Assembly: GCF_037392515.1 (NCBI RefSeq)
Contig: NC_090288.1
Location: 4,519,501 to 4,583,500 of the forward strand
Length of the DNA: 64,000 bases
From: Haliotis asinina
Taxonomy: Eukaryota > Mollusca > Gastropoda > Lepetellida > Haliotidae
Direction of reading: 5' to 3'
The notes under the pieces are model-generated. The model ran no database searches and had not been told where the DNA came from. It was given only the letters and a program-made list of their open reading frames with translations. Both the position numbers and the translations under genes were made by a program. Positions 24,632-64,000 of this stretch are shown here, piece by piece. Numbering within the stretch: position 1 is the first letter of the stretch; every line of letters begins with the position of its first letter.

Positions 24632-25001
24632 ACTATTGTCATGATGCATTTTTACTGCCTGAGAGGCAACGTGAGATAATCTTGTGACTAAGTGACACTA
24701 TGCACGCAGCCATTGACTGGAATTCCCTCTCAACATCCTCTTTAGGCACAGGCATCATGGTGAGTAAGCATAATTCACTGTATTCACTTTCATGTGTTTG
24801 TTTGAGTTCTGCAGCGGTCCTTGTTGCACGTTGAATACCCTGATGTTCATAACAAGATTGAAAATGTCGTTGTTTGGTATTAAAAATTCATTACCAATCC
24901 GTTGCTTAATCCAGCTTTAACCTGTCTTGTATTTTGTGTCTTGAGGAGAATTCACAAACAAACACATTTGTAAATGTTTTACTGCCACGTTCACGTTCCA
25001 T
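24563..25001. other. Non-repetitive spacer and 3' flank of dehydrogenase copy A
   Basis: Single-copy sequence between the array and the 28-bp minisatellite. From ~24900 it is recognisably related to 40436-40530, downstream of copy B (shared TCACAAACAAA and tACTGCCA/TTGCCA phrases), so the ancient gene duplication reaches this far. Confidence 0.55.
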
Positions 25002-25795
25002 GGGAAGATATGACTTGAGTAACCTCCGTGGGAAGATATGACTTGAGTAACCTCCCAGGTAAAATATGACTTGAGTAACCTCCCTGGTAAAGATATGACT
25101 TAAGTAACCTCCCTGGGAAGATATGACTTGAGTAACCTCCCTGGTAAAGATTTGACTTGAGTAACCTCCCTGGGAAGATATGACTTGAGTAACCTCCCTG
25201 GGAAGATATGACTTGAGTAACCTCCCTGGGAAGATATGACTTGAGTAACCTCCCTGGTAAAGATTTGACTTGAGTAACCTCCCTGGTAAAGATATGGCTT
25301 GAGTAACCTCCGTGGGAAGATATGACTTGAGTAACCTCCCTGGGAAGCTATGACTTGAGTAACCTCCCTGGGAAGATATGACTTGAGTAACCTCCGTGGG
25401 AAGATATGACTTGAGTAACCTAACTGGGAAGATATGACTTGAGTAGCATCCGTGGGAAGATATGACTTGAGTAACCTCCGTGGGAAGATATAACTTGAGT
25501 AACCTAACTGGGAAGATATGACTTGAGTAGCATCCGTGGGAAGATATGACTTGAGTAACCTCCGTAGGAAGATATGACTTGAGTAACCTCCCTGGGAAGA
25601 TATGACTTGAGTAACCTCCCTGGGAAGATATGACTTGAGTAACCTCACTGGTAAAGATATGGCTTGAGTAACCTCCCTGGGAAGATATGACTTCAGTAAC
25701 CTCCCTGGGAAGATATGACTTCAGTAACCTCCCTGGGAAGATATGACTTGAGTAACCTCCGTGGGAAGATATGATCTGAGTAACCTCCGTGGGAA
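25002..25795. repeat. 28-bp minisatellite, about 28 copies, downstream of dehydrogenase copy A
   Basis: The unit reads GGGAAGATATGACTTGAG followed by TAACCTCCCT with small variants (CCGT, AACT, GGTAAAG). Because 28 is not a multiple of 3 and the unit lacks stops in some frames, long minus frames appear (332 and 182 residues). They are artefacts of the repeat. The array sits inside sequence otherwise shared with the flank of copy B, which has no such repeat, so it expanded after the gene duplication. Confidence 0.95.
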
Positions 25796-26357: not shown

Positions 26358-29300
26358 TTATAAGCCTCCGATACAGACATATTTCATTTCCAGATAGTCA
26401 TCCATTCCGTATTTGCTGCCTTCTCTGCCGAGCCCAGACTCCTTCACTCCTCCAAACGGCGCCTCTGGGGCGTTGATGAAACCTTCATTAACACCACATA
26501 GGCCAATCTCCAACTTCTCTGCCACTCGCCAGATCTGGCTTAGGTTTTGTGAGTAGAAATATCCTGAAAGATTACATGACAACTCATGGTTCTTTTATGT
26601 TTAGATATATATTACTAAGCTTTTGAAAATAACAAAAAAAAAAACCTAACACCACTTGTAGCTTCACCTTTACATTGATGAAAAGTATCAGTTTGTAGAA
26701 CTTTTGAATAATGAGAAGATAATTTGAAGAAAATGATAATTTTCTTATTAATACTTGTTTTCTAAATGTTCACCCAAATTTGCTTTATGAGAATAGAATA
26801 CCAAACCTTGTTAAACAATTGACTCTATTACTCATTTATTATAAGAAATATCATACTTATTTTCTCAATTTTCAGGAAAAATTGCTTTCTTGGGCTAGAA
26901 TGCCAAACCTTGTTAATAATTGACTAATTTCTCTCCTCATTTTGAAAGACAACATATGTTCCCAACTGTCAAGGGAACTCCAGAATGTATGCGTTACCTG
27001 CCAAGCCAGAACTTGATGAATTTGCTATGGTTACTGCCTCTTCTTCTGTCTTGAACCTGTAAATCAGTCAAATGTGGTCTTAATTCTCTCTTCTAAGTTC
27101 TTTTTACTCATGTGATAATAAAACAAATTTCCAACTCTATTGCTTCATCTCCAGTGTTTATTATTCTGCATTAGGAGATGGTAACCAACTGACCTAAATT
27201 TCAGATGGCTCGAATGTGTAACTTGTCTTAATATAAGCTATCATCTCTGAGGAATTTAACATCCATGCCTAATAGTGGACAATTAACTAGACTCAGTCCT
27301 CAAGAGGAAATGTATTGGATCCCCTCTGATATCTCTATATCTTGATCCTCAATGCTATACATGAAAACATGATTCTTGTATTACGAAGAGACCATATTCC
27401 TTCCTCATAAGAAATACATGCCAAACGCAAAAATATGGACTGAATTCCATTCAAATATTCTGAAGTATCTTCTGTGTATCATTACATCCTATCATAAAGA
27501 CGTAAAAGAAACCTCAAGATTCTTTCATATCAATGTAGAAAGGTTAATCAGTACTATCAAATTATATTAAGTAAAATGAAGGATCCTTGAGTGGTTTAGT
27601 GTTTTTGAGTAGTTTATGCCAACAGTCGACCCAGCTTGATTGATAACAAAGTATTCTAATACTGAGAAGTTACATTACCCCTGATGATGCCTTACAGCCA
27701 ACCATATATGAGCAGTTATGGCATGTGATTCTGATTACAACTTTACTTGATAACAGGAGCAACTGGTCCAAATATTTCCTCTTTAGCACATCTCATTTCC
27801 ACAGTGACATTGGAGAGTAGCGTTGGCTCAAAGAAGTTGTCTCCCTTGTTTGACCTCTTGCCTCCACATACCAGACCAGCGCCTAGTCTCTTCGCATCTT
27901 CTACAATGCTTTCGACCTGTCAACAAGTGGCATATACGTTAACATAAACTCATACCACTATATCACAGAGTAAACAGAGTTTCTTAGCAATGACTTGGAT
28001 CACTTTCTCTTCTCTATACATACAAGCATCCGGATCGGTTATAGGAGTGTGCACCAACGCGCTTCGCTGATGCCAAGGTGAAATATACACATCTGAGTTT
28101 TAGTAAATCCTGATAGTTCATTACACCACGGCTGATATATGTGACGTTGAATTTTAATTTATGTATCCTAAGAACTTACCAAATGCCTGTCTGCCAGCCA
28201 TTGTTGATTACGAACTTTCGATCCTTGGTTAAACTTCACGACTTTACTTATCATGAACTAATTAATGTTTTAGTCATCATATGGCTGAATTATTGCCGAT
28301 ATAACTACAGATCTGAATGCACTCACGCACTCAAACGCCAGTGCCAAACATCCTTGTTTGACAACGGTCTCAGAATTTACACCGAAAACATGGCATCATA
28401 ATGGAATAAAGAAGTTGTTATCTACAACGTATCCGGCCTTGAAAGTTAATTTCACTTCTGTCTAAGACACAATTTCCCATTATAGAATACCGTATTTCCT
28501 CCAATATACGCCCGAGCTATTGTTTTTTCAACGGCGTTCCAGACCCGCCGCTGATTTGCGTTCACTGGATCGATGGTTACCGTAATTGATAGTGACCCGG
28601 CCTGTATTAGAGACCAGACGCATATTAAAGGAAATACGGTAAACGTTTTGGCCCAGACAACTTACCTTTTCCACAGCCTTAATGTTGATGAGAGGTCCCT
28701 GAGTTGTGCTGTCGTCAAGCCCGTCTCCGACTCTCAGCTCTTGCTTCATGACTTCAGCGAGACGTGCAACGTATTGGTCATACACTCCCTCCTGAACCAA
28801 CATCCGGTTGGCGCACACACACGTCTGTAGGAAACAGGAAACAGTGATCAATTGCGCTGTTTGCTTGCTGAACATGTTTGATTCAATATTTGTGTACATA
28901 GGTGACCACATTCATGGCACATCATCATCATCATCAGTCTGAAGACATTACGTCATAATTCCACAATCACGTGGTACTACTGATGACTCTGCTGTGTTAA
29001 GGCCATTACTAAGTCGCTGGACTCGAGCACGGGCATTCTGTAATGGCATACAACTAAACAGTGAACCGGTGCAAAGACCATATACCAGTATATGGACCAC
29101 TGTCAATCATCTAGGAACAGGCTGTGAAAGAAGGAGCGCATCTGAAGAGAGTTCCACATCATAGCAGAGTGCTTTAAGGATCTGGAACCAAATGGGTTTA
29201 TTTCAAATTTTAGGGAGGTGCACAAAGCAGGAATCTGTCAGATGAACGAAAGTTTCTCGGAATATTAGTCGGTAGGGTGCTCAGCAAAGTCAGAACAAAC

Positions 29301-32300
29301 CTGCCCACTACATCGAAACCTGCTGACGATGGTTCCTCGCACGGCTGCGTCAATATCAGCACTGTCGAACACGATGAAGGGCGCATTTCCGCCCAGCTCC
29401 AGGGACACTTTCTTCACTGTAGAAGCCGACTGCTGCAGCAGAATCTGTAATGGGAGACAAGTCTTAGTGAACATCTCAACGTTGAGCATCATCCTTGGCG
29501 ATGCAGGGTAAGACATCCGGTCAAACGTAGTCAGGCCCGGTGGGGTGGTTTGTTATACTAGTATTCTATTATACTCGCATGTTTGATTGAATAGGGTTTT
29601 ACTAATGTGCTTTTAGTTTCTTTCTGGCCCCTCAGACTCAACCCTTTGAATAGCAAGTTGACATTAGTCCATCAACAGCTGTAGCCGCAATAAAGATCTG
29701 AACAGTTCCGCGTTAGAATTGGTCTTCGACAACCCATGCTTGTCAGAAGAGGTGATAGAACCAAGTGGTCAGGTATGCTGACTTGGCTGACACGTCATCG
29801 TCTCTCAATTGCGTTAAACGATGTTTTATGTTGGATAATGTCGTCATTATCACCAGTTTGTTGGAGCAATCATATGTTCAATAACTCAGACCCTTACTTT
29901 GCCTATCCATCCCTATCCACCCGAATGTTTAGTCGGTGTTCATTTTCAACTGTGTAAACACATTTGTTTAAGACAAACTAAAGCTGCAGTGTTAGAGAAT
30001 TTAGGCATGGAGCCTGTATGTAACTACACTATGTGAATGAGTTGGGTTTTACGCCGCTTTCAACAATATTCAACCAAAATCACGACAGGAACACAGGTCG
30101 TGGTGTCACTGCTAGGATTAAAGACCTTTTTTAAAATATATATACATTTTGAGATGACCCCCGACTTGAAACACTTCACAGTACAATAGCGGACGACAGC
30201 AAGCGTCGAGCAATGAGAGGGCTTGCTTTGATAACATCCCTTTTATCCGGCCTTACCGTCCTCGCTATCGTCCGCCATTTGTGTCAAGATCATTTAGTTC
30301 AGGGTCAAAATCGGCTTTGAGTCGACTTCTAGAAATGAACAAAACACTGGTAGGTGTCATCACTGTTTACAATACGTTGAGAGCTGACACTTTTGTGGCC
30401 ATTCAGTGTTTAGTTTGAAGCGTTGGCAGCACGTATGAATAACCGTAAACAATAGAAAAACAAGTGTCCTTATGTATTGATTGAAGCGATTGTAACTTCA
30501 AATTGCTTTTTATGCGCTTGAATAACTAACGTTGATTCTGGCGACTCCTGCCTATCTCAAACATACAAAATGTGTCTTGCATATTTTGATTTGTGATATA
30601 TTTATTGCAGGTTGTGGAGATCGTGAGGCAGGAACATAGAAAAAACAATTTGGTTGAGGTTGACAAATAATATGTAGAAAAAGAAAACATAAAAACAACG
30701 GCATGTGTATCATTCTGTAGGTGAGATTGACTACATATTGAACGCGCCTGAAATAAACACGGTCCGCAAAAGCAACGTTTCACAGTGCATGACACAAATG
30801 TGCCTTTACCAACGTCAGATATCTGGACTCAGTGTACGCTGAATACATGACATGACTCAGTTGAATACATGACGAGCTTTGTGGATTTCAAACGGTATGA
30901 CGTTTCAGAGCTAATAATTGCTCAAACATCGTAGAATGAATAAATAGAAGTTGTTTTCAGTGAAACGTGTCATGTATTCATGTTCGTGAAGGACTTCAAG
31001 GACTTTTCTCACCTTCCCTACGACCGTGGAGCCTGTGAAAGAAATCTTCTTGATGATGGGGCTGGTGCACAGTGTGTTGCCAACGGAGGGAGCATTGTCC
31101 CGGGAACTGGTCACCACATTCAACACTCCGTCCGGGAGGCCCGCCTCCTTCGCCAACTGGTAGGAAGAGAGAGGCTACTGAATCATTGTCATCTTGCGGA
31201 ATCATTTGATAACTCTATCGACGTGATTTTGGGGTTGATAGAAATAATGAAATATTTTGCAGTCTCTAGAAACATATCATAGAGTCTGGGCAACACGTGC
31301 ACGCCTCGGGACTACTGACCACAACATGTCACCGGGGTCATTTTCAGTAGAATTGGTGTAAGCGTATGGGCTCCATTAGTGGAACTTATGTGATCAAACA
31401 ATATCTTACTGGACTAATATTTTCTCGGGTTTATTAACGTCTTCTTTCCAGACATTGACCTGTGCAAATCAAAGCTGCAATTTAATCTTGGATTATTGAG
31501 TGAATGAATTCTTCAAAATGAAATTGTTAAACTTTCTCATTCAGGGCGAATATTTTGCATGTCATAAATATGTTTGCAAGTTGTGTGGAAGACAGCGATT
31601 CAGTTTAAGGAGTTGAAGTTAAACAAGGTTAATGATGACAACAGTTTGCTCTGATTTTTAAAAGTCAGCTCAAGCATCAAGGAAAGGAACAATCAGCTCC
31701 GAGCTCTCCTCCTTTTTTTCCCTGAACGTCATCGAACCTGTCCTTGGTAACCGCTACGTACGTGACACATGGCCAGAGCTGAGAATGGGGTGTCTTCTGC
31801 TGGTTTCAAGACGACAGTGCAGCCGGCAGCAATGGCGGCACATGCCTTCCTGGTGATCATAGCACTCGGGAAATTCCACTGGAACACAAATATATTCAAA
31901 GCATGCAAAGACTCATTCATCAATTCAAGAACTGTTTTATCTGGTTAAGTTTTCGGGGTTTACAGATCATTGTTGTCAATCTCAAAAAGAACAAATCATG
32001 GAGCAAGCTTCCACTGTGCATACATCTGAAGACATCAAGTCGAAACAACCTATAAGCCGGCCATTCAGATAACGCGTTATGTCAAGACAACTTTTAATCT
32101 GACCAATCAGATTGCACGTCATGTCAGAATAACCTTTAATCTGATGATTCAGATTCGCACGTTATAAACCGAAATTGAAAGTCCCGATGTATTTCTGTTG
32201 AATTATGTAAACTCAAAACGATAGCATAAGCCAAAAAATCAAACAAAGCTATTTCGAACAAACAGTTACGGGATGTACAACTGATTCTATCAATTGAATT

Positions 32301-35300
32301 GTCTGAATTTCACTTCAAAGAAATAAACATCGACAGATTCAGCAAGGTACGTGGTTAGTACTGCCATACAATTTCACCCATCTGTAAGGCATTCGAGAAT
32401 ATTTTTTTTGTTTCAGATGTTATCGAGAAATTTGGCAAAGTGTTCTTTTAAAGAGTAGTCTGAAACAAAAATCACGAGTTCGAATTACAAGTGAGTGAGT
32501 GAGTGAGCTTAGTTTTACGCCGCTTTTAGCAATATTCCAGCAATATCACGGCGGGGGACACCAGAAAATGGACTTCACACATTGTACCCATGTGGGGAAA
32601 CGAACCCGGGTCGTCGGCGTGACGTGCGAACGCTTTAACCACTAGGCTACCCCACCGCCCCGAATTACAAATGTCATTTATGTTAAAGAATGCTGTTTTC
32701 TCATTGTCTGATGTCAACTTCCCGTTAGTCGATCAAGGCGGTGGTGGAGTAGCCTAGTGGTTAAAGCGTTCGCTCGTCACACCGAAGACCCAAGTTCAGT
32801 TCCCAATATGGGTACAATATGTGAAGCCCATTTCTGGTGCTTCTCGCCCTGATATTGCTGGAATGTTACTAAAGGCTTCGTAAAACTAAACTCACTCACG
32901 ATAAAACATTCCATGTTCACTCATGTGAAACAGCTTGGTAGAATCCACTGTCATAAGTCTGACTTACAGGCGTGATCATGCCGGCCACACCAATGGGCTG
33001 TTTCAAGACCAACATCCTCTTATTGGCTGTCGTTGACTGAATGACGTCACCACACACACGCCTGGCTTCCTCCGCATACCACTCGATAAACTCACCGGCG
33101 TTGTTAATCTCAAACAAGGCGTCTTTCAGAGGTTTGCCCTGCGGAATAGGCGATATTAAAAGTACTTTGATACTGGCAGTATCACTGATCATTGCACAAT
33201 TTATTATCAATGACAGTACCTTCACCTGACACCCTTAACTGCGAACTTCATAGATCAGAGAACGTGCATTCTGTGAAAGATGTATTTTTCAGTGGTGCCA
33301 CTGGGCATTAGTAAAGATGTAATGGTGTGCCCTTTACAATTTACGTGTATCGACAAGACTAATTGTTTTGAAACACCTCCGGACTTGGTGTGTGCCGCTT
33401 TTAGTTCGAGTAATGAGCTGTTGGAATATCATAGTTGTGCGCTTTCCCGTTTTAAAGACTAAAACATTTTTCTTTTCAAAGTCTGAATCCGCAGGTTTAA
33501 TTCATCAATCCTACTCTAATAAATATGCTTAAATATTCATTTTACATGTGCTTATCACATCTGGTTTCCAATTAAAACATTTCAGGTATATTCAGGTCTA
33601 ATTTCAGCCCTGGGCACATATCACCTGTGTTATTATCATGTTTGTGACGCCACTCTCAAAATTATGTCACAAGGTTCAAATGTTGACTTTGTTTCAGATT
33701 TGGAAGATATTTTGGGCTTTTAAGTTGGAAAAGACCAAAGCTCCATTGCCAGCATGTATAATCCACACGTGCTGAACACTGGCGTGTCATGTCCAACAAA
33801 GCATCTAAGAACTTCCACGAGTTGTTTGGGTTTGTTTTTTTTCTCACGTTTTCAGTTGTCAGTAGTTTAGCCAACTCCAGCTTGTTTTGATTGGTCAGAT
33901 CAAACCATTTCCTCAGAATCAAGCCCCGATCCTGTAAAAAATATTCCAAAACATTTTCAGTGACAATGAGTCAGTTATCCGAAAGGAGAACTACTTCATT
34001 AACAGCCACTATGTGTAAACTACTAAACAATATACCTCTTAAAATCTTGACAAATTAAAACCATACGCAGACATGAATAACTTCAGGGTATTTCTGCCTT
34101 ATCATCTACACATGGAGCCTACCTTTGCCGTGGTTTCCCTCCACCTGAGGAATGCAGCATTAGCTTTCTCTATGGCCTGCAGTGTGTCATCTGCGTTCAT
34201 GTCAGGGACAGAACCTATCGTCTTGCCTGTCGACGGGTTGGTGACTGAGGGGCAACAGATGGTGGAATATGAGAGAGACATCGGTGATGCCTGTTTCATG
34301 TTTATGAGGTTTTTGATAAACCAAGAAACATAATAGGTTAAAACTCAGGTTCGAGTCCACTGTCGCCGGGTCTTTTCATGCCTTCGAAGGAATGCAACTT
34401 GAAGAGTTAAAAACAAACATTTTGAACAAAAGGAAATGTCGCTTATACGTTATGGTGTAGCTGCGATAGTATTATGAAAGCGTTACACTTGGTATTGTAG
34501 AGACGTTTGTCCCTCTCAGACCCTTTTGAAGGTTTGTTTTATGGCTTTTGTGTAATTTCTTCACTTGCATTCCACATAAAAATCATCTTCGGTTAAAGAC
34601 TTGCTTGTGTTCAAACGTTAGATAAACACTTCCAGACAATATTTTAATGTGTTTTAATGAGCTTCAAAGACGAAGACCAAAGTCACATTCACATTAACAC
34701 ACATTTTTCCAACACCTTTTGATAATGTCTTGAATGGTGGCCAACACCACAACACCTCATCCTTTACTATTACCCATGAATACTGCATTAATTAATCAGA
34801 ATAATCTTACTTTGGTATACCGAGCCAGACTTAGCTGTGACCCACTGTCCATCCACAAATGCCTTGTCAAAGAGGAAGCTGCTGATGCTGCGGACACCCA
34901 ATGCTGCTGCAGGTGTGACTGCATCTTTGGTTGTGATGTGAAATACACGCAGCTGGGAAAGTTTCAGATGTCGGGACACTATTTGAACAGATCGCGAACA
35001 CATGTAGCGACCCTGAAAATTTTAAAAAATATCGCTAGCAACCAAAAATGTTTTAGACTCATTCTAAACTAAAATATTTTGTAACAACGAAAATCATACA
35101 AGGTCCGTTCATGAATGAAACTATCACATGTTTTTGATGATGATGCCTTTCGTACTATACAAATCAACATGCGTTTACAGTAACACATTGGGTGATTGAG
35201 TTGGAACAGTATCCCCGGTCCATCAAGGCAAATCTGTATCATATGAACCTGTGAAGATCCGTGCTAGAGTTGGTCCTCAGCGATCGATGTTTGTCGTAAG

Positions 35301-41737: not shown

Positions 41738-44700
41738 TTATAAGCCTCCGATACAGACATATTTGATCTCCAGGTAGTCATCAATTCCATATTTGCTGCC
41801 CTCTCTGCCGAGCCCTGACTCCTTCACTCCACCAAATGGCGCCTCTATGGCGGAGATAAGTCCATCATTAACTCCACACAGGCCAACCTCCAACTTCTCT
41901 GCTACTCGCCATATCTGGCTCAGGTTTTGTGAGTAGAAATATCCTGTAAGACAATTCATGGTTCTATTATATACAGATATCAATTATTCATTTTTTGAAA
42001 ATCACAAATCTTTCCTACCTGGACTCATAAATACATGAAAAAGGAATAGATTAAATAATTGTCATTTTATGATACACTGATAAAATAACCATCTTCAATC
42101 AGACTGTCCAAAATGAGACTTTTCTGTCTGAATTTCCAAGACAAGTCTGTCACCACCTTGTTGCCATACCTGCCAAGCCAGAATTTGATGAGTTTGCTAT
42201 GGCAACTGCCTCCTCCTCTGTCTTGAACCTGTAAATCAATCAAAATGGTCTTAGTTCCCTTCATCATTTTTACTCAGGAACGAGTCCAAAGAATATTTCC
42301 TAGCTCTGTATTTCTTCATCTTCAGTGTTTATGCTTCATTAGAACAAGGTCAAGCGCTTCTTGTTCATATAACTTGACTTAAATGTGAAATGGCTAGAAT
42401 GTATGGCCTGTCTGTCAGCCATCGTGTTTGTTTCTGTGCCTAATGTGGGAAATTATATAGGACTTATTTTTCACAAGAACATTTATTTGATGTGTTCATA
42501 AAGGAAATACTTTAGTCTAGAGTTTTTTCTGTGAAATATATAAATAGTAAGGGCATTTGATAATCAGCGGTGTACATGAAAACATGATGCTTGTATTGTG
42601 GAGGGACTATATCCCTTCCTCATAAGATCTTGAGATATGTCAAACAAAAACATTACCTGAATTCAATTCACGTAACATGAATTTTGTAAACTAACTTGTT
42701 AACTATTTTCAGTGTGCTTCATATGTATGACTATAGGATTACACACAACTAAAATGTGGGAAAAGAATGCGAAATTCCATTCATATTATCTGGCCAAAAG
42801 GCATTAACTATAAAAAAAATCTATTTTTAGTTTAACTTCTGTTGAATAACTTATGTCAAAGATGCCGCACCATAACTGATATTACGTTACCCAGATGGCA
42901 CATACATATACTAATGTGAGAATGGTTAAGGCCCATGATGCAGATTACATCTGTGTTTCCAACATACTTGATAACTGCAGCCACAGGTCCAAATATTTCT
43001 TCTTTAGCACATCTCATTTCCACAGTGACATTGGAGAGTAGTGTTGGTTCGAAGAAGTTCTCTCCCTTGTCTGATCTCTTGCCTCCATATAGCAGCCCGG
43101 CGCCTAGTTTCTTGGCATCCTCCACGATGCTTTCTACCTGTCAACAAGTGGAACAAACAAGAGCCATCAAATCATCATCTCACAGTTACTTAAAGCCCAT
43201 ATTGTTTCCATGGAAATCGAGGAAAATCAGAAAGCTAAAATTCTACAAATACCAAAGGCACCACCTTGAGATCTGTTTCATATATCTTATATTGTAACAT
43301 TGATAGATTTTGAGCAGTTTTTGAGTTATGCTCCTGAAACAAAGAGCACATCTTCCTTTTGAGAAGAAGTCCAAATTGTTTCCATGGAAATCCAGTCACA
43401 AAAAAATGCCAAATCACTGCAAATAGCAGATGGCCCCAGTTTAGGTTTTGTTTGATACATCTAACAATTTTTGTTGGAAACTTTTATATGTTTTTTGAGT
43501 TATGCTCCGGCAATGAAATGATTATGGTGGGACAGGCAGACAAGGTGTTTACAATATCATTCCAATACAGTAGGCTAGGGCGATAAATAAACGAAATAAA
43601 AACAATATAATCATTGTGACTGAGTAAAGATCTACTGCTACTTTTACTTCCATCTAAACAATTCGTGTTAGAAACAAACAGAATCATATTTTAGCTGGAG
43701 ACCACATTACCTTGTCCACAGCTTTGCTGTTGATGAGAGGTCCCTGAGTTGTGCTGTCGTCAAAGCCATCCCCAACTCTAAGCTCTTGCTTCATGACTTC
43801 AGCGAGGCGTGCAACGTATCGCTCATACACTCCTTCCTGAACCAATATCTTGTTGGCGCACACACATGTCTGCAGAAAACAGGAAGCAGTGATCAATTGT
43901 GCTCTACACCTGATGAAAACTGAATGTTTGATTCATGCTTGTGTGAAGATCTGGTGCACTATAGCCAAGTTAATCAATTACACGTGTTGGCACACAGAAT
44001 TGCCCAAGTTGATATGACATTATGATGTGTTATTTTTGCAGATATGCAATTTTCATGACATCATTCAGAATTCACGGCTTGTCTAGTTGTACGAGTTTCA
44101 ACATTGTATTAGAGCCACTGGCATTACGGCTCAATGAAAACTAATAATATAAAAAAATATTTCAAAATAATCAGCATCTTGTCACAGTTGTCTGGGGATG
44201 AAATTAATATAATCATTGCATTATATGGTCCAAATGCAAATATTAAGAACTGCTTGTAGTAAGAGCTGACAAACACGATCAGCTGATCAAGCTCGCTGAC
44301 TTGGTTGATACATGTCTTCATATTGCTAATGCTGTTGATCATTGGATTGTGTGGTCTAGTCTCGATTATTGTCATATAGCTGTTATATTGCTGAGTGTGG
44401 TATAAACTCACACACACAAACCATATGACTGATGGTCTTAATGTTTATCACTGCACTGTATGGTCCAGACTCAAACATTTACAGACAGCTGTTGCATTTC
44501 TTTACAGGGTATTCAACAAACAAAACAGACATCACTTACCTGTCCACTACATCGAAACTTGCTGACCATTGTACCTTGGACGGCTGCCTCAATATCAGCA
44601 CTGTCGAACACAATGAACGGCGCATTACCACCCAGTTCCAGGGACACTTTCTTCACTGTCGAAGCTGATTGCTGTAGCAGAATCTGTAATGGGAGACAAC

Positions 44701-47700
44701 TCTTAGTGAAGATCTCAACCATGAACACCAACAGGTAAGAAAACAAGTCTCCAAATCAAATTTCTCGTGTAGTCAGAAATCAGTGAGGATTGTAAGTCAT
44801 TTCAGTATGATTCTACACCATGTTTGCAATATTCCAGCATAACAATTGAATGTTTGAGCAAGTTTTACGATGCTCTTAGCAATATTCCATCAATACCAGA
44901 AATGGGCTTCACACATTGTACTCATGTGGGGAATCGAGCCTGGGTCTTCAGCATGACATGTTTTAACCACTTGGCTAACCCACAGCCCCTTTTGAATGTT
45001 TGAACCTAAACTCAGCCAAGCAAGGTTTCACAACATATGACACAAACGTGGCTTGACAAATGACAGGTATCTGGCTTCATAGTCCGCTCACCTTCCCTGT
45101 GACCGTGGAGCCTGTGAACGAAATCTTCTTGATGATGGGGCTGGCGCACAGTGTGTTGCCAACAGAGGGAGCATTGTCCCGGGAACTGGTCACCACATTC
45201 AACACTCCGTCCGGGAGGCCTGCCTCCTTCGCCAGCTAGAAGGAGAGAGGCTACTGAATTATTGTCATGTGATTGGATAGTTTTGTTGCTGTAAAAACTT
45301 CATGTTTTGGCTAGTAGAGAAATATTTTCAAGTTGGATTCTCTAAACACAAAGCACAGGTTCTGTGGCAAAACGTTATAAGACTGCTGGCCCGATCACAG
45401 CAGCTAGGATCATTTTCAATAGGATTTACTTCAAGAAACAGTATTTTACTGCACCATTTCCATGGATGATATAAGAATCTTCTGTGTAATACTGCTGTTA
45501 AAGTTACTATTTATATCAACCATGAAAATATGAATGCTGTGAATTATCAAAATGAAAACATTAAACTTTCCTATCTAGGAAGTGAACTTATCTCTAAACA
45601 CATTAAACTACATAACTATGTTTGTAATTTGTGTGGAAGAGGGCCATGTAATTTGCCAGAATTTACAGGGGGCAATATCAGTCATGACAAGTGCTTGCAC
45701 TGATGTCCTCAAAGTAAGTTCAAACATTAATGAAAGGAACAAGTTGCTCAGAGTGGTCCTCTGTATTTTCGGTCTTCGTATCAATGATGACAAGAGCTTG
45801 CAATGATGTTCTCAAAGTAAACTCAGTTACAGATGGACAAAAAACATTGATGACAAGAGTTTGTACTCAAAGTAAATTCAAACATCAACGGAAGGAACAT
45901 TCTGCTTAGAGTGGTCATCTGTATTTTCCCTGGGTGACTGAAGCTTCCCTTGATACCAACTACTCACCTGACACATGGCAAGAGCTGAAAACGGGGTGTC
46001 TTCTGCTGGTTTCAAGACGACGGTGCAGCCAGCAGCAATGGCTGCACATGCCTTCCTTGTGATCATAGCACTGGGGAAATTCCACTGGAACACAAATATA
46101 TTCAATGTACAACTGCTGTGAGACTCTCTTATAATATAAAAACAATTTTTTGCAAACAATGCCGATACTAACGAAGCGTTCTTCTTCATTTTCATAGCAA
46201 TATTTTCACACTTTTTAGCCACCTGTGCTTATTTTGAGACATGAAAAATGTTACAGATGGTTGACTTGGTTGATTGTCAGTACACTGTTTCATCTTTCAT
46301 TAAATCATTTCACTTCAAAACGCCAACAAAAGATAAAATGTGAACATTATCATAACATATAGCATAGATCTGAAACGAAGCAGTATTGCCATACAATTTT
46401 GACGATCTTTTCATACATTCCAGAACATCTTCAGTTTTCAAGTATAATCCAGAAATTCGGAAAAATATTTTTACAGATTAGGCTGAAATATAAATCACCA
46501 GATTGAAAAAAGTTTAAGAAGCTGTTTTCTGATTGGTTCAGCTGTGCATCACTTCCATTTTCACTGAACAATCACTGGACAATCTTGGTGGCGTACACTG
46601 TCATACAATTCCCTTATGATTGACTTACAGGTGTGATCATGCCAGCCACACCAATGGGCTGTTTCAAGACCAGCATCCTCTTGCTGGCTGCTGTAGGTGG
46701 AATGACGTCACCATACACACGTCGAGCTTCCTCTGCATACCACTCAATAAACCCAGCAGCATAGTTAATCTCACCTATGGCCTCTTTCAGTGGTTTGCCC
46801 TGTAGGATATGAAATGTCAAGTGTATCTTGATACTTGCAGCATTAATGAAGATTACAGAATATCAGATCAAAACCTCACTTCACCTACCATCCTTACCTG
46901 TTAAAATTGCAGTCCATCCAGGGGCAGATCCAAAATTTAGAAAAAAGGCGACGCACATAAATCAGTAAGTCCAAAGGTTAGAGGGTATTTTTTTTCAAAA
47001 GAGAGAATGGGAGCCTGCCACTACCTCTGTGCATCACTTCTAAATGTTATTCCAAGACTTTAAATAATCCTAACATTCTTCCATCTAGAGGTGCAAGCAA
47101 ACACATTTAGTTAATTCACAGCAAGGCTAAATGGTTTCTCTTGCACATCAAGAACAGTATCTAATACACAACCTTACAAATAACACATGGCACTTCTACA
47201 GAGAGGCATAACCTCTGTGCAGTATGTCACAATATATAAGACTACATAAAAAGTACTGTAATGTTTCTCGGGCATCGGTGCATCATTTTTATTGGTACGC
47301 ATGACAATTTTTCATTGCCATTAAAAAAATCATTCTGACTTGGCTACATACGGATCATCCATTTGTCCACTAAAAGAATGAGAGTCTGTAACAAGTGGGA
47401 CTGAATCTACAACTCATCAACACATGCTAAACTTCCAAGCTGTGTTTCTGAGAGAAGAAAACATAAAAATGTGTCCCTCCCATGTCACTTCTTTTTCCAT
47501 CAAACATTTTAAAAAAAGTCCAAACGCCCTCGTCACTTTTGAAGAAAATGTGCCTGAGAAACATTGAATTGTTTTTTTTCTGCCAAACGTTACAGTCCTC
47601 ATATTAAGTAGTCTGCTCAAAAGAAGTAAAAGAACACCTGTTCTTTTACACAATAATGAATTTGCATTGCCATGAAATGATTAACATTGTCAAGCCAAAC

Positions 47701-50474
47701 ACACACTACTTAAAAGTTGTTCCAGAGCACCTTTTCTTTCATATGACATGTTAACTTTAGAAATCTTAAAGAACTGCATGATCTTTGAATCTTTCGAGAA
47801 GTATATGCTTGCCTTGATCACTTCACATCAGGAGCTCATACTGAACAAAAACATAATAATCCAGTGTTTACATATATGGCTGGTACAAGAAGAGAAAGGC
47901 CACAAACTATAGAATTTGTTTTCTCACATTTTCAGCTGTCAGAAGTTTTGCCAACTCCAGCTTGTTTTGATTGGTCAGATCAAACCACTTCCTCAGAATT
48001 AAGCTCCGTTCCTGTAAAAAAGATTTCTGAGTAAATTTTCAGACAGACTGAGTAAGTTATCAAAATGGGACTATTTCATTAACAGCCAGTATGCATATGT
48101 GTAAACTACTTAACATTATTCTTGTTAAAGGCTCAACAAATTAAAACCATACGCAGACATGAATAACTTCAGGGTATTTCTGCCTTATCATCTAGATATG
48201 GAGCCTACCTTTGCCGTGGTTTCCCTCCACCTGAGGAATGCAGCATTAGCTTTCTCTATGGCCTGCTGTGTGTCATCTGCGTTCATGTCAGGGACGGAAC
48301 CAATCGTCTTGCCTGTTGACGGGTTGGTGACTAGAGGGCAACAGATGGTGGAATATTAGAGAGCCATGGGTGATGCCTGTTTTCTTAACCCTTTCATGAC
48401 ACGCACTGACATAGATGAAGTGTGGACAAACCAAGAATAAGAGGACAAACACAAGCCCACAGTCACAGGACTGCATCGTGCCTTGACAAGGGATGCAACT
48501 TGCTATGTCAAACAGGAAATGTATCATTGAAGAGTTATGGAAAATCAATATTGTTGTTGTGCTTAGTATCGTGAATAACATCTAGTCGTTTCTAGTCCCA
48601 TTAAACACTCTGACCCTAGAAGTACCTGAATACCTATGTAAACATCAACTGGCTTTAAGGACTTGTTAGATACAAATGTTTGATAGTAACTTCATGAAAA
48701 CATGTATGACATGCATTCTTAATGCACAATTAGAACCAAAAGGAACAAGATGAATGTCGAATTCACATTCACATTAATCATCTGACAAAACTACCACATC
48801 ATAATATAGTCCAAAACATTTCCTAATTTCTTGACTAACTGATAGTTTATGGGTTAAAATGATTGCTACAACACCTTTTCCTTAACCCTGTAGTATTACA
48901 GCATTAATTCAAAAGAATAATCTTACTCTGGTATACCGAGCCAGACTTAGCTGTGACCCACTGCCCATTGACAAATGCCTTGTCAAAGAGGAAGCTGCTG
49001 GCGCTGCGGACGCCCGATGCTGCAGGTGGCACTGTATCCATGGCGATGTGAAATACACGGAGTTGGGAAAGTTTCAGTTGTCTTGACAATATCTGTACTG
49101 ATCGTGAACACATGCAACACACCTGAAAAATTTGAAAGCATTACTTTTCACCCACATTAAATTCTGCTGGCACTAAGAAAATCATACAGTATTTCTGATC
49201 CACCACAGCACATCTGCTTCAAATGGGATTGGGAGGGAGGCCCAAAGTAATATACAGATCTCATTTGTTTATCATGTGACATCCACAAGCAGACCTATGG
49301 TTCTGAAAAACCTAGAAACATAATCAGAGCGAACTGGGATTCAAACCTAGGAACATAGGTTTCTGACACACCCAATCCTGCACAGTGAACTGCATCGCCT
49401 CATGACACGGCTACCTATGACGTCTTTGTCATATATGTGGCTTATTCATGTGCATAGGTGACTTACTAATATCAGACTGTACCTGAAGTTGTCTAAGAAA
49501 CTTACTACTTCCATGAATCAAAGAGTATGGTCCTGACACAAGTTGAAAGATAATCAAACCCCCCAAAATCAAAGGAAAGGTTTGTCTTGTGATGGCTTAA
49601 AATTGCCTGTATATCAGAGAGCTGGTGTATATGCATGATCAGTCATCTCAAATTGAGCATATACATTATTTGAACAAAAATCTGAACATAAAATATAATG
49701 AATAGCTTATTCTCTATGGTAGGGGTACCGCCATTATGGTGCCACATATGCATTGAAGGGGTACTGCACTTGATGTCACAACTTCATCACCATTTCCACT
49801 GTAACTACTGGTTTCACTGAGCTCAGAAGTGTATATATGTGTTTCAAAAATCATTTCTGAAATGCATAAAGCACTGTAATCATATTATAATATGCCAATG
49901 TGGCTAAAATTACCATTCCAACATTAGGCAGCTGATACCATGCAGAGACTTAAAAATGGTCCCTAGAAACATGGTGCTCACTAGACAAGACTCAATAATT
50001 AAGAGTTTCATATTACATTAAGAATACAACTACATAGACTTCAAATTGAAATTGCAGGTCATTTTTTGAGACACGATGTTTCTGAATCATCTATCAAAAC
50101 TCTCACAAGACTCGCATCACACAGTATGACAGCACCTATCTGGATAAATGACTTCTCCCTGAGCTAAGGAGTGATGAGTAGATCTACCACACTATCTATT
50201 AAGACATTCACCAGCCAGACCAGCTGATCATGTCAGTGCATCCGATCTTGGCGATTCTCGCGTACCGTCTCTAATGCAGTTCGGAGTGTGACACACGAAT
50301 GTTACTTCACAAACCCTGCATCAATGTACCGTTGTTCGCTCGTGCGTTTGACTGATACTGAGACAGCACAGTCTCGTCAATCACTCACCGCCGCAGATGC
50401 ACTCGTGAGCTCACAAATGACACATAACCGCAGACTAGTGTCGGTCAACTTCTTGCTAAGATTGTACGTACCAT
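41738..50474 (-). CDS. ALDH5A1: Succinate-semialdehyde dehydrogenase, mitochondrial, copy B
   Basis: Same reaction and compartment as copy A. Coding exons: ATG at 50474-50472, then 49122-48927, 48330-48209, 48011-47928, 46799-46629, 46084-45968, 45235-45092, 44683-44540, 43869-43711, 43137-42968, 42228-42170, 41943-41738. Every exon has the same length as in copy A except exon 2, which is two codons shorter; total 524 aa. Seen: [24 protein letters not shown] (Glu295), FRCSGQTCVC (catalytic Cys329) and [14 protein letters not shown]. The Ser of GLIS (Ser487) matches human Ser498, and Arg323 and Arg202 match human R334 and R213, so the whole known substrate-carboxylate pocket is kept. The N-terminus [18 protein letters not shown] is basic (targeting peptide). 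EARRVYGD keeps Tyr as in human. This copy looks like the conserved enzyme; copy A lies 3' to it in the same orientation. Confidence 0.96.
43201..43530. repeat. Two-copy diverged tandem repeat (~176 bp) in an intron of copy B
   Basis: TTGTTTCCATGGAAATC recurs at ~43201 and ~43377, and TTTGAGTTATGCTCC recurs at ~43320 and ~43495, in the same order and at similar spacing. Strongly diverged; origin unknown. Confidence 0.6.
44275..44415 (+). mobile_element. SINE-like fragment (CCCATGCTTGT family), 5' truncated
   Basis: The middle and tail are recognisable: GCTCGCTGACTTGGTTGATA, GCTGTTGATCATTGGATTGT, CATATAGCTGTTATATTGCT. It lies in an intron of copy B and is not present in copy A. Confidence 0.6.
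44868..44992 (-). mobile_element. tRNA-like SINE, minus orientation
   Basis: Reads on plus as AGTTTTACGATGCTCTTAGC ... GTGGGGAATCGAGCCTGGGT ... TTTTAACCACTTGGCTAACC. In an intron of copy B, absent from copy A. Confidence 0.65.
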
Positions 50475-56919: not shown

Positions 56920-59900
56920 TTACTTCTTGTTTCCGTGGTGGTGAAGACGCTGGAATAAACATAGGTCATTAGGCTTCAAATCCTTGAGCACGACATAATT
57001 ATTGGGTTCTGAATGGGGAGTAGAAACGGGGAGTTTATGTGGGGATTTACGGTTATACCCAGTCAAACACGGATGTGTCGAAACTGAAGAGACGTGCGAG
57101 TTATTCAAAGTTCAACAAAAATGGTGAAATCCACAAATTGGTGACTCAAGTAAGAATACGCAGGGGCATAACTTTCACTTCGAAACAAGCGTATTTCGCC
57201 ATAACAGACATAACTGTATATGTATCAGGTTTACACGGTATCGCATGCACGTATATAAAGGAATAATGTCCTTACGTGGTGAAGATAAGTTTCGAACTCA
57301 ACCTTGTTCACCGAACCATTTGCTGTAAGTATACAAAAATATATAACTCTACATACATTTAACCTCTTTTTGAGTTATATCATTTTCTATGGTACACGTC
57401 GATGAAAGTATGATATTGTTTTACTCTGCATAACTCCCGGTGGGAATAGAATCGCATAGTCTGTTTAATGAACTTAAAAACACATCAAACAACTTGCTGT
57501 CTGGAAAACATAACCTAAATTCAGTGGAAGTATGGAAAATACCTGTATGACACAGACTTTCGCAATAAGAACCCCATCCATAAAAGATTTTCAGTAATTG
57601 TAACTCAAAAAGGGTTTATCAAAATTGTGTTTAAAGTTATTTTCCACATAGAACTGACCGTCGCCGTCGAATGCGGCAGTTATTGCCTTGATCCCGGCGT
57701 CGTCGAGGGTGATCCAGCGGCGGTGACCGATATCGAAGGCGTGGAAGAGGCTCACGGCGTAGGCATGCATGTCGTGGTTCCGGTTGGTGGAACAGTGGAA
57801 GAACTCAGCCTCCGTCAAACGCTTATCATCTGCAGTGAGGGTAGAAATAAAGTCGGGTTTTCTTCTCCTCTATTTCGGCTAAATATGCCTTCAATCGCCA
57901 ATGGCGTAAAGTAAGACTTAAACCCAACTAGGGTCCATGCAGGTAGCGAAAGTACTGTAAGTCCTCGAGGACCTCATTCTCTTCCCACAGAGGTTACTCC
58001 TGTCATATCTCCCTACGTATGACAGGAGTAACCGCTGTGGGAAGAGAATGCGTGCATGGATCTCAGTCTGGTGATCTACCTTCAGCTGTTGGCGACCTGT
58101 AGCCTGTTTTTATATTGTATTGTCTTCGTAAACAAATTATTTTCAGATTTATCGCTGCTTTTAAACACCATCGGATAGTTATTTTGCAGGCTTTAAAATT
58201 GGTTACCGAAGAACTTATATTTATTGTGTATGGAAAACCTTTATCGTCAGCTGAAATATTGCCGAGATGACGTTAAATCTTAACTCACTTACTCACTCAC
58301 TCACTCACTCACTAAAGGTAGGCGTCGAGCGATAACCGAAGGCTTTACGACATAAACTAACACTTCACTTAAACCGCCTCTTTGGATTAATAAGTGCTTG
58401 AAAATTCATGATATGTATCTTCAACTACATACACTCACACGCTCATGCATCTCCTGATATCTCTCCATGGTATCATTTCAACAGTTCGGGGAAGACGGGA
58501 AATCTTTTCACATATGTGGAATTACTACTTAATTCAAAGCCATATTTACTCTAAAATATCAATCAATCAATCAATAACAAATCCTGTGTTTATCCCGTGT
58601 AACATTGTGGCCTGATTAATAATGACGCTTTTGAAACCATGCTGCCAAACATCACAACAGATGCATAAAGGTATACATAGATATAATTATAGGGTCGCAA
58701 CTCGGTTTTATTTCATCAAATTTTTAAAAATAATTGTCCATCCATATTATAACTTTTTGAAAGACTGTTACCAAGTCATAGAAAAATCATTTAATAAAGA
58801 GAATTTACACAGTTAGTGAATAACCTTTTGAAAACATTTTTAAGCCGGAATAGAGTTGAGCCTAGAAGCAGGTAACAGAACAGTGCCTGTCTATACGTAC
58901 CGTTCCTGTCACAGCCGACGAGGTAGGTCATCATCTCGTCGTTGGAGATACTGCCGTCACGATCTTCGTCCTTGAGCAGAAACAGGCGGTCTGTTGCCGA
59001 CTCGATGGAAGCATAACTATCAAAGAAAATGGCTGTAAAATATCCGCTCTTTTGAGAATGGTAATCTTCCTAATAATTTCCAGATACATTTAAAGATTTT
59101 TTTATATTCTTTCACACAAAGAAATGAAAACATTGATAATAAAATAATTATACTGTAACAGACATTAAGAACTATTACAGTTTGGCGTTTTACCTTTTCT
59201 AAATTTCTTGTGATGACTACAGTATGTTTATGACAGATGGATAATATTGTAGACCATGTGGTCATATAGGGTTCATAATGACAATTCTTTGTTGTTTTTT
59301 AAAAGGGAAGTTAGCGGACATTTGGAACAACAAGCGATGTATACTACGTATCATAAACTGAAACTTCAGTCAACTAATGTATGTATAGCCACTTACTTCA
59401 GTCAACTAATGTATGTATAGCCACTTACTTCAGTCAACTAATGTATATATAGCCACTTACTTCAGTCAACTAATGTATATATAGCCACTTACTTCAGTCA
59501 ACTAATGTATATATAGCCACTTACTTCAGTCAACTAATGTATATATAGCCACTTACTTCAGTCAACTAATGTATACATATATAGCCACTTACTTCAGTCA
59601 ACTAATGTATATATAGCCACTTACTTCAGTCAACTAATGTATACATATATAGCCACTTACTTCAGTCAACTAATGTATATATAGCCACTTACTTCAGTCA
59701 ACTAATGTATACATATATAGCCACTTACTTCAGTCAACTAATGTATATATAGCCACTTACTTCAGTCAACTAATGTATATATAGCCACTTACTTCAGTCA
59801 ACTAATGTATATATAGCCACTTACTTCAGTCAACTAATGTATATATAGCCACTTACTTCAGTCAACTGTTCTAAACTAGATTTGGCAAAACATTCAAAAT

Positions 59901-61130: not shown

Positions 61131-64000
61131 CTTTGCTGTATCCTCGACTGGATCCCTACTCTATCCCAGACCAGACCACATACTCTATCTTTGACTGTAT
61201 CCTCGACTGGATCCCTACTCTATCCCAGACCAGACCACATACTCTATCTTTGACTGTATCCTCGACTGGATCCCTACTCTATCCTAGACCAGACCACATA
61301 CTCTATCTTTGACTGTATCCTCGACTGGATCCCTACTCTATCCTAGACCAGACCACATACTCTATCTTTGACTGTATCCTCGACTGGATCCCTACTCTAT
61401 CCTAGACCAGACCACATACTCTATCTTTGACTGTATCCTCGACTGGATCCCTACTCTATCCTAGACCAGACCACATACTCTATCTTTGACTGTATCCTCG
61501 ACTGGATCCCTACTCTATCCTAGACCAGACCACATACTCTATCTTTGACTGTATCCTCGACTGGATCCCTACTCTATCCCAGACCAGACCACATACTCTA
61601 TCTTTGACTGTATCCTCGACTGGATCCCTACTCTATCCTAGACCAGACCACATACTCTATCTTTGACTGTATCCTCGACTGGATCCCTACTCTATCCCAG
61701 ACCAGACCACATACTCTATCTTTGACTGTATCCTCGACTGGATCCCTACTCTATCCTAGACCAGACCACATACTCTATCTTTGGCTGTATCCTCGACTGG
61801 ATCCCTACTCTATCCCAGACCAGACCACATACTCTATCTTTGACTGTATCCTCGACTGGATCCCTACTCTATCCCAGACCAGACCACATACTCTATCTTT
61901 GACTGTATCCTCGACTGGATCCCTACTCTATCCCAGACCAGACCACATACTCTATCTTTGGCTGTATCCTCGACTGGATCCCTACTCTATCCTAGACCAG
62001 ACCACATACTCTATCTTTGGCTGTATCCTCGACTGGATCCCTACTCTATCCTAGACCAGACCACATACTCTATCTTTGACTGTATCCTCGACTGGATCCC
62101 TACTCTATCCTAGACCAGACCACATACTCTATCTTTGACTGTATCCTCGACTGGATCCCTACTCTATCCCAGACCAGACCACATACTCTATCTTTGACTG
62201 TATCCTCGACTGGATCCCTACTCTATCCTAGACCAGACCACATACTCTATCTTTGACTGTATCCTCGACTGGATCCCTACTCTATCCCAGACCAGACCAC
62301 ATACTCTATCTTTGACTGTATCCTCGACTGGATCCCTACTCTATCCTAGACCAGACCACATACTCTATCTTTGACTGTATCCTCGACTGGATCCCTACTC
62401 TATCCTAGACCAGACCACATACTCTATCTTTGACTGTATCCTCGACTGGATCCCTACTCTATCCTAGACCAGACCACATACTCTATCTTTGACTGTATCC
62501 TCGACTGGATCCCTACTCTATCCTAGACCAGACCACATACTCTATCTTTGACTGTATCCTCGACTGGATCCCTACTCTATCCTAGACCAGACCACATACT
62601 CTATCTTTGACTGTATCCTCGACTGGATCCCTACTCTATCCCAGACCAGACCACATACTCTATCTTTGACTGTATCCTCGACTGGATCCCTACTCTATCC
62701 CAGACCAGACCACATACTCTATCTTTGACTGTATCCTCGACTGGATCCCTACTCTATCCTAGACCAGACCACATACTCTATCTTTGACTGTATCCTCGAC
62801 TGGATCCCTACTCTATCCTAGACCAGACCACATACTCTATCTTTGACTGTATCCTCGACTGGATCCCTACTCTATCCTAGACCAGACCACATACTCTATC
62901 TTTGACTGTATCCTCGACTGGATCCCTACTCTATCCTAGACCAGACCACATACTCTATCTTTGACTGTATCCTCGACTGGATCCCTACTCTATCCTAGAC
63001 CAGACCACATACTCTATCTTTGACTGTATCCTCGACTGGATCCCTACTCTATCCCAGACCAGACCACATACTCTATCTTTGACTGTATCCTCGACTGGAT
63101 CCCTACTCTATCCCAGACCAGACCACATACTCTATCTTTGACTGTATCCTCGACTGGATCCCTACTCTATCCTAGACCAGACCACATACTCTATCTTTGA
63201 CTGTATCCTCGACTGGATCCCTACTCTATCCCAGACCAGACCACATACTCTATCTTTGACTGTATCCTCGACTGGATCCCTACTCTATCCCAGACCAGAC
63301 CACATACTCTATCTTTGGCTGTATCCTCGACTGGATCCCTACTCTATCCTAGACCAGACCACATACTCTATCTTTGGCTGTATCCTCGACTGGATCCCTA
63401 CTCTATCCTAGACCAGACCACATACTCTATCTTTGACTGTATCCTCGACTGGATCCCTACTCTATCCTAGACCAGACCACATACTCTATCTTTGACTGTA
63501 TCCTCGACTGGATCCCTACTCTATCCCAGACCAGACCACATACTCTATCTTTGACTGTATCCTCGACTGGATCCCTACTCTATCCTAGACCAGACCACAT
63601 ACTCTATCTTTGACTGTATCCTCGACTGGATCCCTACTCTATCCCAGACCAGACCACATACTCTATCTTTGACTGTATCCTCGACTGGATCCCTACTCTA
63701 TCCTAGACCAGACCACATACTCTATCTTTGACTGTATCCTCGACTGGATCCCTACTCTATCCTAGACCAGACCACATACTCTATCTTTGACTGTATCCTC
63801 GACTGGATCCCTACTCTATCCTAGACCAGACCACATACTCTATCTTTGACTGTATCCTCGACTGGATCCCTACTCTATCCTAGACCAGACCACATACTCT
63901 ATCTTTGACTGTATCCTCGACTGGATCCCTACTCTATCCTAGACCAGACCACATACTCTATCTTTGACTGTATCCTCGACTGGATCCCTACTCTATCCCA
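61131..64000. repeat. 59-bp satellite array, at least 48.6 copies, open at the window end
   Basis: The unit contains CTGTATCCTCGACTGGATCC and CAGACCACATACTCTATCTT and recurs every 59 bp without visible indels. The main variants are TATCCCAG/TATCCTAG and TTTGACTG/TTTGGCTG. Each unit has a GGATCC site. Long plus frames here (for example 61722-62054) exist only where CCCAG replaces the TAG of CCTAG, so they are not genes. Since 59 is not a multiple of 3, each frame cycles through all three translations. Confidence 0.98.

What the first reader, a model, noticed from the sequence alone, without database searches (positions are those of the whole stretch)
26358..26563. Duplicate SSADH (copy A) has Asn at the position of the substrate-binding Ser498
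Sequence: copy A reads [10 protein letters not shown] and copy B reads [10 protein letters not shown] at the same exon position. Spacing from the catalytic Cys is 158 residues in copy A, copy B and human, so the alignment is unambiguous. Established: in human ALDH5A1, R213, R334 and S498 contact the succinic semialdehyde carboxylate. Inference: copy A keeps both Arg, the catalytic Cys and Glu, but lost the Ser and has Phe for the neighbouring Leu. This suggests a changed or relaxed substrate preference while the gene stays intact.
Basis: partly seen in the sequence, partly recalled or inferred. Interest (0 to 1): 0.72.

Follow-up and report, generated by a model that had tools for sequence, protein, structure and literature searches.

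The report
Abalone SSADH twin with rebuilt pocket
This mollusc genome, probably an abalone's, carries two intact side-by-side copies of the gene for a GABA-breakdown enzyme; one copy has asparagine where 223 of 233 relatives from other animals and bacteria have a substrate-holding serine, along with other changes at its predicted substrate tunnel, so it likely handles a different aldehyde, which is untested.

Summary
The minus strand holds two complete 11-exon ALDH5A1 (succinic semialdehyde dehydrogenase, SSADH) genes in tandem: copy A 35003-26358 and copy B 49113-41738. Copy A has Asn485 and copy B Ser483 at human Ser498, 158 residues after the catalytic Cys in both. It is neither an error nor a common variant: Asn also occurs in both Haliotis database proteins found (H. 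rubra, H. cracherodii) and in 0 of 233 other listed homologues (223 S, 4 A, 4 P, 2 T). The story is larger than one residue. A/B differences concentrate at positions equivalent to the ALDH2 substrate tunnel (7 of 16 named residues versus 47 of 504, P=5e-4; list applied after seeing the differences), including Gly155Phe and Tyr159Asn. A/B dN/dS is 0.14, and copy A keeps the seven other active-site residues checked. The A/B duplication predates the split from H. rubra (A+B clade rejected). Best reading: an active duplicate with a remodelled tunnel and likely changed semialdehyde preference. Against it: a test on conserved sites is not significant with all homologues as reference, faster evolution of copy A is significant with only 2 of 6 outgroups, and no enzyme or expression data exist.

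The parts
26358..35003 (-). Copy A, complete ALDH5A1-like gene, 11 coding exons, 522 aa (Asn at human Ser498)
   Evidence: Exon model with GT..AG at all 10 introns, frame kept; TIGR01780 686.2 bits over cut-off 646.35
26358..26563 (-). Copy A exon 11 (the finding); carries loop [14 protein letters not shown] and stop
26472..26474 (-). Copy A codon 485 AAC (Asn), equivalent to human Ser498 and ALDH2 Phe459
26478..26480 (-). Copy A codon 483 TTC (Phe), human Leu496, ALDH2 Asp457
32968..33138 (-). Copy A exon 4; holds helix alpha-3 with D152, L154, F155, N159, G161, E162 (human numbers)
33112..33114 (-). Copy A codon 142 TTT (Phe) in place of Gly, human 155, ALDH2 Val120
   Evidence: G in 193 of 212 Ser-type homologues with a residue there
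33100..33102 (-). Copy A codon 146 AAC (Asn) in place of Tyr, human 159, ALDH2 Met124
   Evidence: Y in 207 of 214 Ser-type homologues with a residue there
29301..29444 (-). Copy A exon 7; catalytic Glu306 and Arg334 equivalents kept
28666..28824 (-). Copy A exon 8; catalytic Cys340 and redox Cys342 equivalents kept
34811..35003 (-). Copy A exon 1 from predicted ATG; likely mitochondrial presequence (inferred from position only)
   Evidence: start codon not tested by transcript
41738..49113 (-). Copy B, complete ALDH5A1-like gene, 11 coding exons, 520 aa, canonical Ser at human 498
   Evidence: TIGR01780 701.5 bits
41738..41943 (-). Copy B exon 11; loop [14 protein letters not shown]
41852..41854 (-). 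Copy B codon 483 TCC (Ser), human Ser498
46629..46799 (-). Copy B exon 4; helix alpha-3 with the usual G155, Y159, A161, G162

Best explanation
Copy A is an intact tandem duplicate of the SSADH gene (ALDH5A1) whose predicted substrate tunnel differs from copy B's at several positions (Gly155Phe, Tyr159Asn, Leu496Phe, Ser498Asn in human numbers) while the catalytic Cys and Glu and both carboxylate-binding Arg are kept, so it likely still oxidises an aldehyde that bears an acid group but with a changed preference, leaving copy B as the predicted ordinary GABA-shunt SSADH. Shown here: two complete genes, the residue states, purifying selection, sharing of Asn498 with two other Haliotis proteins, and the clustering of A/B differences at tunnel-equivalent positions. 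Inferred: that these positions line the tunnel in this protein (by alignment to human SSADH and ALDH2 and by residue numbers to RlGabD), that both Arg still hold a carboxylate with Asn498 as a weaker or re-aimed hydrogen-bond partner, and that the bulky Phe155/Phe496 and small Asn159 reshape which chain fits. Not tested: activity, substrate, expression, mitochondrial location.
For: Complete gene structures, splice sites and frames intact. TIGR01780 SSADH profile passed by both. Asn498 in A, H. rubra P0003 and H. cracherodii P0004, in 0 of 233 others. F155, N159, G161, E162, N498 all shared by A and H. rubra. ALDH2 tunnel residues named in PMC10650273 (passages read): A and B differ at 7 of the 16 equivalents against 47 of 504 other positions, P=4.9e-4; leaving out four named residues (tunnel-bottom Asn169 and Glu268, charged Lys112 and Arg329), 7 of 12 against 47 of 508, P=4.7e-5; leaving out two more beside an alignment gap, 6 of 10 against 48 of 510, P=1.5e-4. 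A/B differences in helix alpha-3 plus the Ser498 loop, the two pocket-mouth elements named for RlGabD (PMC10599462, passages read): 10 of 26 against 35 of 453, P=3.4e-5; dN/dS 0.51 and 0.58 there, 0.10 in the rest of the mature part. Whole-gene dN/dS 0.142; neutral drift at 0.10-0.18 substitutions per site would give 4.7-7.7 stops on average, none seen.
Against: The two segments and the tunnel list were applied after I had seen the differences, so the P values are optimistic. Several tunnel sites (human 151, 154, 162, 496) vary in ordinary SSADHs. With all 233 homologues as reference, copy A's departures at 90%-conserved sites are not significantly enriched in the two segments (2 of 9 against 9 of 188, P=0.08; without 498 P=0.35), although with the 223 Ser-type as reference they are (4 of 11 against 10 of 190, P=0.004, 498 being conserved there by construction). 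More changes on A than B is significant with only 2 of 6 outgroups. The AlphaFold model of the H. rubra protein has pLDDT under 50 over the Ser498 loop and catalytic loop, so it gives no structural support. Asn can also donate a hydrogen bond to a carboxylate (general knowledge), so SSADH activity may be unchanged; conversely the malic semialdehyde dehydrogenase of PMC11353897 (passage read) took another substrate while keeping the Ser. No expression data.
Confidence: 0.55

Rival explanations
1. Copy A is still an ordinary SSADH: Asn498 replaces Ser as hydrogen-bond donor, and the other changes are tolerated drift; the pair is kept for dosage or tissue-specific expression.
For: Both Arg, catalytic Cys and Glu, Lys214, Cys342 and Glu515 are kept; copy A still passes the SSADH profile cut-off (686.2 over 646.35); Thr, Ala and Pro occur at 498 in 10 of 233 homologues; the conserved-site test is not significant with all homologues as reference.
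Against: Asn is absent from 233 others; Phe155 and Asn159 are unseen among the 223 Ser-type homologues; A/B differences cluster at tunnel positions.
Confidence: 0.26
2. Copy A is under relaxed constraint and on its way to losing SSADH function, with no new role.
For: More departures from conserved sites in A than B (14 against 9 of 201); A-only changes such as Tyr175Cys and Glu119Asp; more changes than B with all six outgroups, significantly with two.
Against: dN/dS 0.142 overall and at most about 0.28 for the A branch; no stop, frameshift or broken splice site where drift would give several stops; the same tunnel residues 155, 159, 161, 162 and 498 are found in H. rubra.
Confidence: 0.15
3. 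The Asn and neighbouring changes are an assembly or sequencing artefact.
For: None found.
Against: AAC against TCC differs at two bases; Asn498 recurs in proteins from two other Haliotis records; the two genes are clearly distinct at DNA level (matching stretches 70-93% identical).
Confidence: 0.01

Closest known systems
Human SSADH, ALDH5A1 (PDB 2W8N)
   Different: Copy A has Asn for Ser498, Phe for Gly155, Asn for Tyr159, Phe for Leu496.
Copy B, the neighbouring ALDH5A1
   Same: Same 11-exon structure and 89.6% amino acid identity to copy A.
   Different: Copy B keeps Ser498, Gly155, Tyr159, Leu496.
Haliotis rubra P0003 and H. cracherodii P0004
   Same: Both have Asn498; P0003 also F155, N159, G161, E162; P0004 shares Phe496.
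   Different: P0003 keeps Leu496; P0004 has Ala155, Thr159, Ala339 and lacks Cys342.
Oyster (P498), Mytilus (A498) and Lineus (T498) ALDH5A1 proteins
   Same: Lost Ser498; each falls in a clade with Ser498 proteins of the same lineage.
   Different: Other residues at 498; all keep Tyr159; stems of the oyster and mussel types are long (0.61 and 0.44); most rows in these groups are unnamed.
RlGabD sulfolactaldehyde dehydrogenase (PMC10599462)
   Same: An SSADH relative acting on another anionic aldehyde while keeping the two Arg; pocket mouth formed by helix alpha-3 and the 449-458 loop (passages read).
   Different: Bacterial; the paper reports poor alignment and no clear consensus at the Ser498 position among such enzymes.
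Malic semialdehyde dehydrogenase of Acinetobacter (PMC11353897)
   Same: ALDH with the same Arg/Arg/Ser network proposed to hold a carboxylate (passage read).
   Different: Reached another substrate with the Ser kept, so loss of Ser is not needed for a new substrate.

Membership tests
ALDH5 / SSADH (TIGR01780) | Score above the curated cut-off of the SSADH profile | tested here: met
   Copy A 686.2, copy B 701.5, cut-off 646.35
ALDH5 / SSADH (TIGR01780) | Catalytic Cys340 and Glu306 | tested here: met
   Both copies
ALDH5 / SSADH (TIGR01780) | Arg213, Arg334, Lys214, Cys342, Glu515 | tested here: met
   Both copies; list from PMC11681614 section 2.1
SSADH proper (carboxylate-binding Ser498) | Ser at human 498, reported conserved among all SSADHs (PMC11681614) | tested here: not met
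   Copy A Asn; copy B Ser
SSADH proper (carboxylate-binding Ser498) | NAD-dependent oxidation of succinic semialdehyde | not testable with these tools
   Needs purified protein
ALDH5 / SSADH (TIGR01780) | Mitochondrial location | not tested
   N-terminal extension present in both copies; no targeting predictor run

The most novel reading that the evidence does not exclude
Abalones carry a distinct ALDH5 enzyme, born by tandem duplication of SSADH before H. rubra and this species split, with a re-cut substrate tunnel (Phe155, Asn159, Asn498) tuned to a different acid-bearing aldehyde; and losing Ser498 is a repeated route by which SSADH duplicates in molluscs and a ribbon worm take new substrates while a Ser copy stays behind.
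Probability: 0.38. Interest if true: 0.62.

Novelty: new variant of a known kind. Interest (0 to 1): 0.45.

Why it matters
Ser498 is described as conserved in all SSADHs (PMC11681614, section 2.1), yet here it is replaced in an intact, constrained duplicate, together with other tunnel-equivalent positions. That gives a clean natural pair (89.6% identical, side by side) for asking which residues set semialdehyde choice in ALDH5. GABA can induce competent abalone larvae to settle (stated in PMC3517415, passage read), so a second enzyme of GABA-pathway descent in abalones could bear on that biology; this link is speculation.

Tried and rejected
Structure: an AlphaFold model of the H. rubra protein on 38 sequences had pLDDT under 50 at residues 478-509 and 323-331, the very loops of interest, so I drew nothing from it beyond the helix at 140-161. 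I did not hand in the spliced window proteins, since they are not contiguous in the DNA, and ran no fold search.

Prokaryote look-out: one pattern scan of genome contigs for Gly-x-Ile-Asn-xxx-Ala-Pro-Phe-Gly-Gly gave 16 stretches, of which 0 of 16 matched copy B by blastp at 1e-5. A tblastn of copy B against plasmids matched 3437 records; I did not look at their residue 498.

Co-variation of 498 with 155: 3 or 4 of 5 independent pairs on the tree go together (mean 3.8 over 200 pairings), 0 opposite, median P 0.125: suggestive, not significant.

Conserved-site enrichment: significant for copy A only when the Ser-type homologues are the reference.

Gene conversion: exons 2 and 6 have dS 0.11 against 0.32-0.56 elsewhere; not pursued.

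Single origin of Asn498: holding A, H. rubra and H. cracherodii together costs 0.18 log units (P 0.49), so one origin is possible but not shown; B with H. cracherodii P 0.095; A with B is rejected (P 0.0005).

Literature: 'ALDH5A1' + 'gene duplication' + 'mollus' gave 0 papers; 'Haliotis' + 'succinate-semialdehyde dehydrogenase' gave 2 and 'aldehyde dehydrogenase' + 'gene family' + 'oyster' + 'succinate-semialdehyde dehydrogenase' gave 1, listings and abstract starts seen only, none about these gene copies by title. Kim et al. 2009, the primary paper for Ser498, is not held; its content is taken from papers that cite it. Passages of PMC5385487 and PMC12784744 were seen and not used.

Full report
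What is there. The stretch 26358-26563 is the last coding exon, on the minus strand, of a complete SSADH (ALDH5A1-like) gene, copy A (exons from 35003 down to 26358). A second complete gene, copy B (49113 down to 41738), lies upstream in the same orientation. Each has 11 coding exons with matching intron phases, GT..AG at each of the 10 introns, and an open frame of 522 and 520 codons before the stop. A tblastn of copy A exon peptides against the window found these two copies and no third. Both pass the TIGR01780 SSADH cut-off. The two best database relatives of both are Haliotis proteins (H. rubra 92% to each; H. cracherodii 85% to A and 89% to B), so the source is likely an abalone, probably neither of those two; the whole-genome search did not complete.

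The residue. Copy A has Asn485 and copy B Ser483 at human Ser498, each 158 residues after the catalytic Cys as in human. In human SSADH, Arg213, Arg334 and Ser498 hold the carboxylate of succinic semialdehyde (stated in PMC11681614 and PMC10599462, passages read). PMC11681614 (section 2.1 read) lists Ser498 among residues conserved in all SSADHs. Three searches listed 235 distinct relatives (best 120 of each search); 233 are not Haliotis: 223 have Ser, 4 Ala, 4 Pro, 2 Thr, 0 Asn; both Haliotis proteins have Asn. The set leans to close animal relatives, is redundant (17 pig entries), and one of the three searches was seeded with copy A's own Asn stretch. Asn AAC against Ser TCC is a two-base difference.

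More than one residue. Comparing A and B, the amino acid differences fall heavily in two places: exon 4, helix alpha-3, and the loop around 498. PMC10599462 (passages read) names helix alpha-3 (106-121) and the loop 449-458 as the mouth of the pocket in RlGabD; I converted these to copy A 135-150 and 481-490 by the numbers of the shared Arg and Cys residues, not by aligning RlGabD itself. There, 10 of 26 codons differ in amino acid, against 35 of 453 elsewhere in the mature part (P=3.4e-5); dN/dS is 0.51 and 0.58 in the two segments and 0.10 in the rest. A separate list of ALDH2 tunnel residues (PMC10650273, passages read) was mapped by alignment: Val120 = human SSADH Gly155, Met124 = Tyr159, Lys127 = 162, Asp457 = Leu496, Phe459 = Ser498, Trp177 = Arg213, Phe296 = Arg334. 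Over all 16 residues named in those passages that I mapped, A and B differ at 7, against 47 of 504 elsewhere (P=4.9e-4). Without the two at the tunnel bottom (Asn169, Glu268) and the charged Lys112 and Arg329 it is 7 of 12 (P=4.7e-5), and without two more beside an alignment gap 6 of 10 (P=1.5e-4). All these choices were made after seeing the differences.

How unusual each change is. Among Ser-type homologues with a residue at the site, Gly155 is found in 193 of 212 and Tyr159 in 207 of 214. Among 201 positions at least 90% conserved in the 223 Ser-type homologues, copy A departs at 14, and its only three states not seen in any of them are Phe155, Asn159 and Asn498; copy B departs at 9, none unseen. 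With all 233 as reference there are 197 such positions, Gly155 drops below the limit, and copy A's departures are not significantly concentrated in the two segments (P=0.08; P=0.35 without 498). So the case rests on the A/B comparison and on the identity of the changed residues rather than on this test.

Selection. Whole-gene A/B dN/dS is 0.142 with dS 0.37. Laying all nonsynonymous change on A and splitting dS equally gives at most about 0.28. Simulated neutral drift of copy A at 0.10 and 0.18 substitutions per site yields 4.7 and 7.7 stops on average, and no stop in 0.7% and 0% of 1000 runs. Copy A is therefore a constrained gene. Relative-rate tests give more changes on A than B with all six outgroups but significantly with only two (Littorina 0.008, Mytilus 0.012).

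History. A and H. rubra P0003 are sisters (support 100/99), and a tree that joins A with B is rejected (P 0.0005), so the duplication is likely older than the split from H. rubra; a single Asn clade of A, H. rubra and H. cracherodii is neither supported nor rejected (P 0.49). H. cracherodii P0004 has its own helix changes (Q151, Q152, A155, T159) and lacks the redox Cys342. On a 66-protein tree (quick method), the other non-Ser498 proteins are a group with Crassostrea gigas (4 rows, Pro, stem 0.61), a group with Mytilus galloprovincialis (4 rows, Ala, stem 0.44) and one of two Lineus proteins (Thr); each falls in a clade with Ser498 proteins of the same lineage, though the oyster fork, which also holds Pinctada, is unresolved. 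One further Thr protein (P0113) was not in that tree. Change at 498 and at 155 goes together in 3 or 4 of 5 independent pairs (median P 0.125).

Reading. Shown: two intact genes, the residue states, constraint, presence of the same changes in H. rubra. Inferred: the tunnel location of the residues and a changed semialdehyde preference with carboxylate binding kept by the two Arg. Untested: activity, substrate, expression, location. It is an ALDH5 family member by profile; I do not file copy A as a proven SSADH, since Ser498 is not met.

Noticed in passing
window 3035-23751 and flanks (repeated ORF starts at 3035, 7101, 11161, 15249, 19321, 23362): A head-to-tail array of about 4.04-4.09 kb units, five successive units 99.3-99.7% identical; four ORFs from it hit no Pfam family at 0.01, and Rfam found nothing in the window at gathering scores.
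   Followed up: partly
window 24997-25795: 28-bp minisatellite, about 28 copies at 90% match, just downstream of copy A's stop.
   Followed up: no
window 61131-63998 and 59363-59867: 59-bp satellite, about 49 copies at 99% match, running to the end of the window, and a 32-bp array of about 15 copies before it.
   Followed up: no
copy A and B exons 2 and 6 (A 34123-34244 and 31013-31156): dS is about 0.11 there against 0.32-0.56 in the other exons, which could mark gene conversion between the copies.
   Followed up: no
P0004 (H. cracherodii) and P0045 (C. gigas): Both have Ser for the redox-switch Cys342, so some molluscan SSADH-like proteins would lack that control; P0004 and the Mytilus Ala498 type also share Ala at 339 next to the catalytic Cys.
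   Followed up: partly
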